Part shown: positions 22,365 through 25,022 of the stretch, piece by piece | Layout: each line of letters starts with the position of its first letter | How positions within the stretch are numbered: the stretch's first letter is position 1 | Assembly (NCBI RefSeq): GCF_000482705.1 | Contig: NZ_AXWO01000024.1 | Coordinates: 1-64,000 of the forward strand | Direction of reading: 5' to 3' | DNA: 64,000 bases | From: Glycomyces arizonensis DSM 44726 | GTDB lineage: Bacteria > Actinomycetota > Actinomycetes > Mycobacteriales > Micromonosporaceae | The notes under the pieces: generated by a model | Told to the model about the DNA's origin: nothing | The model's database searches: none | Seen by the model: only the letters and a program-made list of their open reading frames with translations | Made by a program: the position numbers and the translations under genes

Positions 22365-24128
22365 ATGAGCGAGGAGGCGGTCCTGGAGCGGCAGTGGCGC
22401 CTACCCGCCGTCGCCCTGCGGGCGGTGCTCTTCGCGCTCGTCGTCGTGTTCGGCTGGGCGGCGGTCGGCTTCGTCGCCGCCGTGACGTGGTGCGGGATCC
22501 TCGCGCTGGCGACGCTGCCGGGGATCGTCCTGCCGCGGCACCGCGTGCTCGCTCCGGCCGGGCGATTGGCCGAGGTCGTGGTCGTCGTGCTCGGCACGCT
22601 CGCCACCGGGGGGCTCCCCGCCTGGATGCTGCCGTACCTGATCGCCCCGTTCGCCACGGCCGCGTTCGACGCCGCGGCCCCGCCGGGCGAGCAGTCGGAG
22701 TGGTACGCCAGGCTGCGCACGTGGGGGCCGCCGGTGCTCTTGGCGGTGGCCGCCGCCGGACTGCTGACCCAGACCCCGCGCCTGTCGGCGTACGAGCGCG
22801 GCACCTACGTCACCACCGTCGCCGTCGCGCTGGCCTTCGGCATGGCCTCGGCGGTCGGCGCGTGGTGGCTGCGCCGCTCCAGGCGCAGTGACCTGAGCCA
22901 CTCGCAGCTGCCGTACGCCGAGGCCGCGGCCCTGCTGACGCAGCTGCGGGTCGTCGCCAGGCAGCTGCCGGGCTCCACGCTCGACCCCGGCGGCATCGCC
23001 ACCGAACTGGTCGACACGGTCGTGCGCATCCCCGGCGCCGACCGGGCGGCCGTGCTCGCCGCCTCCTCGGGACGGCGGCTCGTCGTCTTGTCCCAGCACG
23101 CCGACGAGCGGGTCGACTGGGAGACCTCCCCGCAGATGAACGCGCTGCTGGCCGACGCCTGGGCCGGGCAGAAACCGCAGGCCGGGCAGCTGCCGCTGTC
23201 GCGCTCGACCCAGGGTCCGGTGGCGTCGCTGGTGATCCCGCTCGTGGCCGAGGGCCGCACCGTCGGCCTGGTGGCGATCGAGTCGGACGACGCGGCCGCG
23301 TTCGGGACCGAGGCCATCACCGCCGCCGAGGAGCAGACCAAGGGCGCCGCGCTGCGCCTGGAGACGGCGCTGCTGTTCGAGGACGTCAGGTCGATGGCGA
23401 CCACCGAGGAGCGCCAGCGGCTGGCCCGCGAGATCCACGACGGCATCGCCCAGGAGCTCGCGATGCTCGGCTACGGCATCGACAACGCGATGGCGGTCCT
23501 GCCCGAGGACGCCGGCGAGGCCGGGACCGAGCTGGAGGACCTGCGCAGCGAGGTCACCAGGCTCGTGACCGAGCTGCGGTTCTCGCTGTTCGAGCTGCGG
23601 TCGAACGTCGACCGCCAAGGCGGGCTGGCGTCCGCGATCGCGGACTATGCTCGTACTGTGGGCGCCTCCGCAGGGCTGCGGGTCCACCTGTCGCTCGACG
23701 AGGGCGGGGCGCGCCTCCCGGCGAGCACCGAGGCCGAGCTGCTGCGGATCGCTCAGGAGGCGATCACCAACGCCCGCAAGCACGCTCGAGCGGAGAACCT
23801 GTGGGTCACCTGCGAAGTGGACCCGCCGTACACGCGAATCGAGGTCACCGACGACGGCCAGGGCCTGGCCGGCGAGGCCTCCGAGGGGCGCTACGGACTG
23901 GCGATCATGAGCGAGCGCGCCGAGCGGATCAGGGGCTCGCTGGAGATCCGGCCCCACCAGCCGCACGGCACCACCGTGGCGGTGGTGCTCAACGCCTCCG
24001 CCAGGCCGACCCCGAAGTCGGCGCCCGCGCACCCGGCCTCCGAGGAGTGGGCGGCCGCCGACCGCGCGACCTCGACTGAGGAGAGGGCACACCAGTCACC
24101 CGACCGTGAGTCCGGAGGTAACCGATGA
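22365..24128 (+). CDS. Membrane sensor histidine kinase, GAF-HisKA_3 (NarL-type partner)
   Basis: A 587-residue NarX/DesK-class kinase. Five or so hydrophobic helices (about 15-170) anchor it; a GAF-like domain follows (about 190-340). The phosphoacceptor is H358 in LAREIHDGIAQELAMLGYG, and the HATPase_c domain (about 450-550) has EAITNARKHARA (N box) and TDDGQGLAG (G1). It should phosphorylate the response regulator at 24351. Between the two genes lies 222 bp of foreign-looking DNA, a transposon relic, so the operon has been interrupted but not destroyed. The signal is unknown; the GAF domain could bind a small ligand or haem. Confidence 0.93.
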   Translation: MSEEAVLERQWRLPAVALRAVLFALVVVFGWAAVGFVAAVTWCGILALATLPGIVLPRHRVLAPAGRLAEVVVVVLGTLATGGLPAWMLPYLIAPFATAAFDAAAPPGEQSEWYARLRTWGPPVLLAVAAAGLLTQTPRLSAYERGTYVTTVAVALAFGMASAVGAWWLRRSRRSDLSHSQLPYAEAAALLTQLRVVARQLPGSTLDPGGIATELVDTVVRIPGADRAAVLAASSGRRLVVLSQHADERVDWETSPQMNALLADAWAGQKPQAGQLPLSRSTQGPVASLVIPLVAEGRTVGLVAIESDDAAAFGTEAITAAEEQTKGAALRLETALLFEDVRSMATTEERQRLAREIHDGIAQELAMLGYGIDNAMAVLPEDAGEAGTELEDLRSEVTRLVTELRFSLFELRSNVDRQGGLASAIADYARTVGASAGLRVHLSLDEGGARLPASTEAELLRIAQEAITNARKHARAENLWVTCEVDPPYTRIEVTDDGQGLAGEASEGRYGLAIMSERAERIRGSLEIRPHQPHGTTVAVVLNASARPTPKSAPAHPASEEWAAADRATSTEERAHQSPDRESGGNR

Positions 24129-24142
24129 GGAGAGAGACCAGA

Positions 24143-24330
24143 GTTGACATCCTTCCCTCCGCAAAGAGAGGGAATACCGACCGGTCGCCTGGTCGGTCTT
24201 CCTGCTTCGCGGGCGACTGCCGTTACCCTCCCCTAGGGGACAACGGTCTTACAAGGCCTCCACAGGCTTCACATCCCGCCAGCCCGGCGGTAGGGCCGCA
24301 ATGCTTGGTTTTCGCGGCACGGCCAGGAAC
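24143..24330 (-). mobile_element. 3' relic of an IS200/IS605-type TnpB element, omegaRNA-like
   Basis: Read on the minus strand, this stretch has the layout of the right end of an actinobacterial TnpB element. A short tnpB C-terminal tail (codons for LPPGWRDVKPVEAL then TAA at 24249-24251) is followed by a structured 3' region and ends at GTCAAC (24143-24148 on the + strand). The end also translates as GIPSLCGGKDVN, very like the tails of annotated TnpB proteins as I remember them. Hairpins: ACCGACC (24176-24182) with GGTCGGT (24191-24197), and CCCTC with GAGGG near 24155-24172. In intact elements this RNA is the omegaRNA scaffold that guides TnpB. No tnpB body or left end is left here. Confidence 0.65.
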
Positions 24331-24350
24331 ATTGTACAAGAAGGAATCCA

Positions 24351-25022
24351 ATGAACGCTGACGCTCCCGAATCGACTGCCCAGACGACGGTCTTGATCGT
24401 CGACGACCACGATCTGATCCGCAAGGGCCTGCGGCACGCCTTCGATCGCGACCCCGAGTTCGAGGTCGTCGGCGAGGCCGACACGGCCGGGGACGCCCTG
24501 CGCCTGGCCGCCTCGCTGATGCCCAGCGTCGTCATCATGGATCTGCGACTCCCCGACGGCTCCGGCCTGGACGCGACGCGCAAGCTCCGCAAGGCCCACC
24601 CCAACATGGGCATCGTGGTGCTGACGATGTACGCGGGCGACGACCAGCTGTTCGGTGCCCTGGACGCGGGCGCGAGCGCGTTCGTGCCGAAGAGCGCCCC
24701 CGCGAACGACGTGGTCTCGGCGGCGAGGCACGCCTCGGCGAACCCGACGGCGTTCAGCGCCGCGGACCTGGCCGAGGCCATGCAGCGGCGCCTGACGCCG
24801 ACCGGCCCCCAGCTCTCGCCGCGAGAGTCGCAGGTGCTCAAGCTCCTGGCGGACGGCCTGTCGGTGGCCGGGATCGCGAAGCAGCTGTACGTCTCGGAGT
24901 CGACGGCGAAGACGCACATCTCGAAGCTCTACGAGAAGCTCGGGGCGGGCAACCGCGCGCAGGCGCTCATGACGGCCTTGAAGCTCGGTCTCCTGGAGGC
25001 ACCGGACCAGCCGAAGTTCTAG
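24351..25022 (+). CDS. NarL/FixJ-family response regulator
   Basis: A 223-residue regulator and the expected partner of the kinase upstream. The receiver domain (about 13-130) has acidic DD18-19, phosphoacceptor D64 in VVIMDLRLPDGSG and the T/K switch residues (LTMYA, PKSAP). The C-terminal LuxR-type helix-turn-helix (about 152-212) reads LSPRESQVLKLLADGLSVAGIAK. ATG at 24351 has AAGAAGGA in front. The ribosome site lies right at the edge of the TnpB relic, so the element may have supplied or replaced the 5' region. Its stop codon overlaps the convergent pimB stop in a shared CTAG. Confidence 0.95.
   Translation: MNADAPESTAQTTVLIVDDHDLIRKGLRHAFDRDPEFEVVGEADTAGDALRLAASLMPSVVIMDLRLPDGSGLDATRKLRKAHPNMGIVVLTMYAGDDQLFGALDAGASAFVPKSAPANDVVSAARHASANPTAFSAADLAEAMQRRLTPTGPQLSPRESQVLKLLADGLSVAGIAKQLYVSESTAKTHISKLYEKLGAGNRAQALMTALKLGLLEAPDQPKF

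What the first reader, a model, noticed from the sequence alone, without database searches (positions are those of the whole stretch)
24143..24330. Orphan TnpB 3' end and omegaRNA-like segment between a histidine kinase and its response regulator
The minus strand carries a tnpB C-terminal tail, a structured 3' region and a GTCAAC end, with no tnpB body. If still transcribed, the guide position just outside the end (minus-strand complement of about 24122-24142) would be antisense to the last codons of the histidine-kinase gene. A TnpB from elsewhere could use it, or it may simply regulate the kinase/regulator transcript. It also splits the operon and places a new leader before the regulator.
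Basis: partly seen in the sequence, partly recalled or inferred. Interest (0 to 1): 0.65.

Follow-up and report, generated by a model that had tools for sequence, protein, structure and literature searches.

The report
Guide-RNA-only jumping element
A 207-base mobile DNA element carrying nothing but a promoter and a TnpB-type guide RNA has jumped in exactly between a regulator gene's ribosome-binding site and its start codon, and it belongs to a dispersed family of such guide-only elements in actinobacteria that dock at start codons and carry a replacement ribosome-binding site.

Summary
Window 24144-24350 (minus strand) is a precise 207-bp insertion, absent at the same HK-RR junction in all 21 other Glycomyces genomes searched. 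It lies 3' of TTCAT with no target duplication and ends in GTCAA. It has no tnpB body, but it is not a lone relic. A covariance model finds 46 strong relatives in 22 Micromonosporaceae genomes, none with tnpB within 1.5 kb where checked, plus others elsewhere in the class. They share a -10 box at fixed distance (36/46, against 0/20 tnpB-linked copies), a 5' hairpin and omegaRNA scaffold pairings supported by compensatory changes. In multi-copy genomes each copy has its own flank as guide. Family left ends are 90-98% identical to tnpB-bearing IS605-type elements. The target TCAT is the complement of an ATGA start: 25 of 29 readable insertions in related genera abut a start codon, and the left end supplies a Shine-Dalgarno. 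At this site the RR's old one (GAGGAG) is cut off and AAGGA replaces it. Best explanation: a guide-only, non-autonomous IS200/IS605 element whose omegaRNA programs a host TnpB in trans to recut the empty site. Expression and trans action are inferred. A host regulatory role is unsupported.

The parts
24144..24350 (-). whole inserted element, 207 bp, guide-only IS200/IS605-type element
   Evidence: empty-site comparison with 21 Glycomyces genomes: no target duplication, inserted 3' of TTCAT
24351..24355 (-). target motif / presumptive TAM TTCAT (plus strand ATGAA, the start codon of the response regulator)
   Evidence: directly 5' of the element's left end; TCAT precedes nearly all family insertions
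24338..24350 (-). left end; on the plus strand it supplies a new Shine-Dalgarno AAGGA (24341-24345) 5 nt before the ATG
   Evidence: sequence; anti-SD pairing -6.2 kcal/mol against -8.6 for the ancestral site
24331..24336 (-). -10 box TACAAT of the solo omegaRNA gene
   Evidence: TANNNT at the same position in 36/46 solo copies, 0/20 tnpB-linked copies; no -35 consensus found
24294..24324 (-). 5' hairpin (H1, GGCCG/CGGCC) with conserved loop GCGAAAACCAAGC (24303-24315); predicted transcript start about 24324
   Evidence: compensatory changes at 3 of the 4 pairs counted
24276..24290 (-). hairpin H2 CCGCC/GGCGG
   Evidence: 100% of cells paired in 45 distinct sequences, 2 pairs with changes on both sides
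24246..24290 (-). remnant of the tnpB 3' coding end, with the TAAGACC motif whose GAC (24246-24248) can pair with the terminal GUC
   Evidence: homology to the tnpB 3' end of G000 contig C2
24263..24266 (-). CCTG, long-range partner of CAGG at 24201-24204
   Evidence: CCTG/CAGG alternates with TCTG/CAGA across the family
24201..24204 (-). CAGG, long-range partner of CCTG
24153..24174 (-). right-end terminal hairpin TTCCCTC...GAGGGAA
   Evidence: sequence and fold
24144..24148 (-). GTCAA end of the scaffold; the guide starts immediately after
   Evidence: boundary set by the empty site
24124..24143 (-). guide position (first 16 nt CTCTGGTCTCTCTCCT = 24143-24128), host flank
   Evidence: only this site in the genome at <=3 mismatches over 20 nt
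24127..24134 (+). former Shine-Dalgarno GAGGAGAG of the regulator, now cut off by the insert
   Evidence: the same kind of site lies shortly before the regulator ATG in all 21 relatives
22365..24128 (+). sensor histidine kinase gene, stop codon 24126-24128
   Evidence: ORF; conserved in relatives
24351..25022 (+). response regulator gene (receiver + LuxR/GerE domains)
   Evidence: Pfam PF00072 and PF00196

Best explanation
The segment is a non-autonomous, guide-only IS200/IS605-family element (MITE/PATE-like). It is an internal-deletion derivative of a TnpB-bearing element that kept a left end, acquired or kept a -10 promoter and a 5' hairpin, and kept the omegaRNA scaffold and right end. Shown: precise insertion, TCAT target at the start codon, replacement Shine-Dalgarno, promoter position and RNA structure conserved over a dispersed family, ends shared with tnpB elements. 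Inferred: the minus-strand RNA is made from its own promoter, is bound by a TnpB encoded elsewhere in the genome (best candidate G000:C2, intact RuvC), takes the 16-nt flank as guide, and cuts the empty TTCAT site so that the element is retained or copied back. Its own site is spared because the element separates the TAM from the guide match. The new Shine-Dalgarno keeps the regulator translated, so the insertion is tolerated. The confidence given is for the identity as a guide-only mobile element; I put active trans-programming of a TnpB in this strain at about 0.5.
For: All 21 other Glycomyces genomes have the uninterrupted junction. The family model separates tnpB-less copies (56-101 bits, no TnpB within 1.5 kb where checked) from tnpB-linked ones (nearly all under 41 bits). 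A -10 box is in 36/46 solo copies (28/36 not used to train the model) against 0/20 tnpB-linked copies. H1/H2 covariation: 22 cells changed on both sides against 4.3 in shuffles, 0/500 shuffles reach it. Long-range CCTG/CAGG and TCTG/CAGA alternate. Multi-copy in single genomes with different flanks: 7, 4, 4 and 3 copies. Family left ends are 90-98% identical to left ends just upstream of tnpB genes, including one in this genome. 25/29 readable type-C insertions abut an ATG; 9 such genes and the window's regulator all hit Pfam. TnpB genes are in 22/22 solo-bearing genomes searched. The candidate partner matches ISDra2 TnpB structures (E about 1e-65).
Against: No RNA data. No sigma-70 promoter with a -35 box and no terminator were found by consensus. 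Only a 31-codon Y1 TnpA remnant is in this genome, so the element is probably immobile here now. The scaffold is only 72% identical to the nearest in-genome tnpB right end, so cross-recognition by that TnpB is unproven. The window's left end is shorter than that of the larger relatives and its LE palindrome is not evident.
Confidence: 0.85

Rival explanations
1. Dead relic: a recently inserted guide-only or deleted element that makes no functional RNA and is simply decaying in the junction.
For: No intact Y1 TnpA in the genome. Two older copies in the same genome show decay (C20 has lost the GTCAA end; the bioB-locus copy ends in GCCAG), and a bioB-locus copy is badly eroded in another species.
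Against: In the window copy the -10, H1, H2, long-range pair, terminal hairpin and GTCAA end are all intact, and structure is kept by compensatory changes over the family. It may nevertheless be inactive in this strain.
Confidence: 0.3
2. Host regulatory RNA: the minus-strand transcript acts as an antisense or RNA-guided (TldR-like) regulator of the kinase/regulator operon.
For: The guide is complementary to the HK stop/former Shine-Dalgarno region. TnpB-derived repressors with adjacent guide RNAs are known (PMC13418256).
Against: Present in only this one of 22 Glycomyces genomes. The full-length TnpBs in the genome keep the RuvC D/E/D residues, so there is no evident TldR. The antisense target is no longer the regulator's ribosome-binding site.
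Confidence: 0.07
3. The RNA is irrelevant and the only consequence is translational: a new leader with a weaker Shine-Dalgarno uncouples the regulator from the kinase.
For: The former SD is displaced 207 nt further upstream; the new SD AAGGA pairs less well with anti-SD (-6.2 against -8.6 kcal/mol). A 78-codon frame (24125-24361) spans the insert and could carry ribosomes across.
Against: Does not explain the family-wide conservation of promoter and RNA structure. It can be true together with the best explanation.
Confidence: 0.25

Closest known systems
IS200/IS605-family PATE/MITE-like elements (e.g. the single PATE-like sequence of Halanaerobium hydrogeniformans, PMC7290912)
   Same: Short element with LE, last part of tnpB and complete RE, no intact gene, presumed mobilised by TnpA in trans; the described one has 28 nt of LE, the last 58 nt of tnpB and a 160-nt RE
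   Different: Here a dispersed family over several genera with its own -10 box and a covarying 5' hairpin, multi-copy, inserted at start codons; the omegaRNA aspect is not discussed in the passages of that paper I read
TnpB-omegaRNA of ISDra2 (PMC10097598) and related IS605 elements
   Same: Scaffold made from tnpB 3' end plus RE, terminal pseudoknot, 16-nt guide after the right end, pentanucleotide TAM
   Different: RNA not overlapping or co-transcribed with a tnpB gene; own promoter; target TTCAT/GTCAT rather than TTGAT
TldR nuclease-dead TnpB repressors with guide RNA (PMC13418256)
   Same: A guide RNA used apart from transposition; that paper's figure legend suggests a frameshifted locus may still contribute guide RNAs in trans
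   Different: No tldR gene here; full-length TnpBs in the genome are catalytically intact by sequence; the element is a mobile DNA and young at this site
RAGATH-18 / IS607 reRNA (PMC11061315)
   Same: TnpB guide RNA class in which 36% of instances were not next to a tnpB
   Different: Different TnpB/IS family; the instances without tnpB are not analysed in the passages I read; no Rfam model matches our RNA

Membership tests
IS200/IS605 insertion sequences | insertion 3' of a short fixed target without target-site duplication | tested here: met
   TTCAT | element | CTCTGG..., empty site TTCAT|CTCTCG... without duplication
IS200/IS605 insertion sequences | subterminal hairpins at both ends | tested here: inconclusive
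   RE hairpin 24153-24174 present; LE palindrome clear in the larger relatives (CTCCGGCCTTCAGGCCGGAG) but not evident in the short LE of the window copy
IS200/IS605 insertion sequences | encodes Y1 TnpA and/or TnpB | tested here: not met
   no TnpA/TnpB coding sequence in the 207 bp; it can only be a non-autonomous derivative
PATE/MITE-like non-autonomous IS605 derivative | ends shared with an autonomous element, no intact gene | tested here: met
   family LE 90-98% identical to LE of tnpB elements, one in this genome; RE homologous to a tnpB RE
PATE/MITE-like non-autonomous IS605 derivative | mobilised in trans by TnpA | not testable with these tools
   TnpA present in 16/22 solo genomes, only a remnant in this one; dispersal with different flanks is indirect evidence
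TnpB omegaRNA (functional guide RNA) | scaffold pairings including long-range stem and terminal pseudoknot | tested here: met
   H1/H2 and CCTG/CAGG covary; GUC/GAC complementary in the window copy (sequence)
TnpB omegaRNA (functional guide RNA) | expressed and bound by a TnpB | not testable with these tools
   needs RNA-seq/RIP-seq
TldR RNA-guided repressor | RuvC-inactivated TnpB encoded with the guide | tested here: not met
   no TnpB within 1.5 kb; full-length genome TnpBs keep D/E/D

The most novel reading that the evidence does not exclude
A class of guide-only mobile elements in actinobacteria that parasitise TnpB nucleases in trans: promoter-driven solo omegaRNAs that spread with their own insertion-site guides, use the complement of start codons (TCAT = ATGA) as target, and carry a replacement ribosome-binding site so that each insertion is near-neutral for the host gene.
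Probability: 0.45. Interest if true: 0.8.

Novelty: new variant of a known kind. Interest (0 to 1): 0.62.

Why it matters
TnpB normally makes its guide RNA from its own mRNA, so protein and guide are linked in cis. A family of promoter-driven guide-only elements would break that link, as the split between effector and guide array did in CRISPR-Cas12, and would make trans-programming of TnpB directly testable in culturable actinobacteria. The start-codon docking with a donated Shine-Dalgarno would show how a transposon can invade coding-dense genomes without killing genes, and it warns that gene starts and leaders in these genomes may be transposon-made.

Tried and rejected
Rfam scan of the region: no match at E<=1. 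ORF length as proof of start codons: rejected as a statistic because 32 of 65 background TCAT sites also open long ORFs in this GC-rich DNA; replaced by Pfam hits and a generous per-site bound. First attempts to extract TnpBs and left ends by pattern failed and were redone. Host-domesticated regulator: rejected as main explanation because the insertion is lineage-specific. Local tnpB deletion after insertion at this site: less likely because equally tnpB-less copies with shared anatomy occur at many sites. Sigma-70 promoter/terminator consensus scan: nothing. Literature searches on standalone/orphan omegaRNA, PATE and non-autonomous IS605 found only the Halanaerobium PATE and remarks on in-trans guide RNA; subscription papers on Geobacillus IS605 elements and on IscB could not be read, so the novelty claim is limited to the held library.

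Full report
What is there. The segment lies in a Glycomyces genome: genus relatives are named Glycomyces, and the window is G000:C19. Between a histidine kinase gene (22365-24128) and its response regulator gene (24351-25022; Pfam receiver and LuxR domains) is a 207-bp insertion, 24144-24350. In all 21 other Glycomyces genomes searched the junction is uninterrupted: HK stop, GAGGAG-type Shine-Dalgarno, a short spacer, then ATGAACGCTGA or a near variant. Read on the minus strand, a close relative has CGTTCAT|CTCTCGTCTCTCTCC and the window has CGTTCAT|207 bp|CTCTGGTCTCTCTCC, so nothing was lost and nothing was duplicated. This is the insertion signature of IS200/IS605 elements.

Not a lone relic. 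Within the same genome there are two more tnpB-less copies and 8 tnpB-type hits, 6 of them full-length with D/E/D RuvC residues. A covariance model built from ten tnpB-less Glycomyces copies was run over 22 Glycomyces genomes, 355 Micromonosporaceae genomes and 395 genomes of the class. It found 46 strong copies (56-101 bits) in 22 Micromonosporaceae genomes and further copies in two other families. No TnpB was found by tblastn within 1.5 kb of any strong copy examined. The weak matches are nearly all tnpB-linked; the remaining weak ones are decayed solo copies. Because the model was trained on solo copies, this split is partly by design; the independent evidence is what the solo copies share and the tnpB-linked ones lack.

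Shared anatomy. Solo copies have a TANNNT box at a fixed position (36/46; 28/36 in copies not used for training; 0/20 tnpB-linked copies). The predicted start of transcription coincides with the 5' strand of a hairpin (H1) whose loop is GNNAACCAAG. H1 and the next hairpin H2 have 97.3% paired cells and 22 cells changed on both sides, against 4.3 expected from shuffles (0/500 reach it), and sliding the partners destroys the signal. A long-range pair alternates between CCTG/CAGG and TCTG/CAGA. The scaffold ends in GTCAA, whose GUC can pair with the GAC of TAAGACC, like the terminal pseudoknot of ISDra2 omegaRNA (PMC10097598).

Mobility. In genomes with several copies (7, 4, 4 and 3) the flanks differ and the bodies are nearly the same. 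A few copies are orthologous between species, so there is also vertical inheritance. The left ends of these elements are 90-98% identical over about 40-60 nt to left ends directly upstream of tnpB genes, including one in this genome. They are therefore best read as internal-deletion derivatives of TnpB-bearing elements. TnpB genes are in 22/22 of the solo-bearing genomes searched and Y1 TnpA in 16/22. This genome keeps only a 31-codon TnpA remnant, so the element is probably immobile here now, while TnpBs remain.

Docking at start codons. The target TCAT is the complement of ATGA. In the window the element sits exactly before the ATG of the response regulator. Of 29 type-C copies with a readable left end, 25 (counted by hand) abut an ATG opening a reading frame on the other strand. 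Nine such proteins and the window's regulator all match Pfam families, six of the ten with the domain starting within the first 25 residues. With 369 TCAT sites per 64 kb, even if some 60 genes all began with ATGA, chance would be at most 0.16 per site (P about 1.5e-16). Open frame length alone is not informative here, and selection against insertions inside genes surely contributes, so this shows where insertions survive, not necessarily where they land. Several tnpB-bearing relatives also sit there. The left end read on the other strand is CACGGAGGTATCCG|ATG in type C and AAGAAGGAATCCA|ATG in the window, i.e. a replacement Shine-Dalgarno. In the window this replaces GAGGAG (-8.6 kcal/mol with anti-SD) by AAGGA (-6.2).

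How it most likely works. Shown: insertion, ends, promoter position, RNA structure, target and replacement Shine-Dalgarno. Inferred from TnpB biology: the minus-strand RNA binds a TnpB made elsewhere in the genome. The best candidate is the C2 protein, intact and close to ISDra2 TnpB, whose own left end also appears to lie at TTCAT. The flank CTCTGGTCTCTCTCCT becomes the guide, and any empty TTCAT site is cut, favouring retention of the element, as reported for TnpB-bearing elements on plasmids (PMC11870625). The element's own site is spared because the motif before the guide match is GTCAA, not TTCAT. The guide matches nothing else in the genome at up to 3 mismatches, so no regulatory target is evident.

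Limits. There are no expression data; scaffold identity with the nearest in-genome tnpB end is only 72%; the promoter lacks a recognisable -35 box. Older copies in the genome show that such elements decay. The held literature contains a single comparable PATE (PMC7290912) and, as far as my searches reached, no description of a promoter-driven, start-codon-docking, guide-only family, but key subscription papers could not be read.

Noticed in passing
L007 (G000:C12) 1895-1992: Downstream of this tnpB the right end's terminal GGGAAAGCCAAGAG unit is repeated three times at a 35-nt period, each copy followed by a different short stretch: a small CRISPR-like array at the end of an omegaRNA.
   Followed up: partly
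L003, L048, L049, L065 (bioB locus): A tnpB-less omegaRNA-like copy upstream of bioB is kept in three Glycomyces species and eroded in a fourth, with apical stems that differ in sequence but stay paired; downstream sequence (the guide side) is partly conserved.
   Followed up: partly
L048 (G019) around 1697-1770: Partial tandem repeat of the element's 5' part directly after its right end (second hit G019:C42:42077).
   Followed up: no
L085 (G000:C20) and L077 (G019:C2): Orthologous decayed solo copies beside a TetR-type regulator gene, with lost right ends.
   Followed up: no
window 24125-24361 (+): A 78-codon frame starts at the ATGA overlap with the HK stop, runs through the whole insert and ends just inside the regulator gene; it could couple translation across the insert.
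   Followed up: no
L002/L005 and L079: tnpB elements lie before the start codon of the methylmalonyl-CoA epimerase-like gene in two different Glycomyces species.
   Followed up: partly
L194, L195: Two species of another family share a solo copy at the same locus with a well conserved flank.
   Followed up: no
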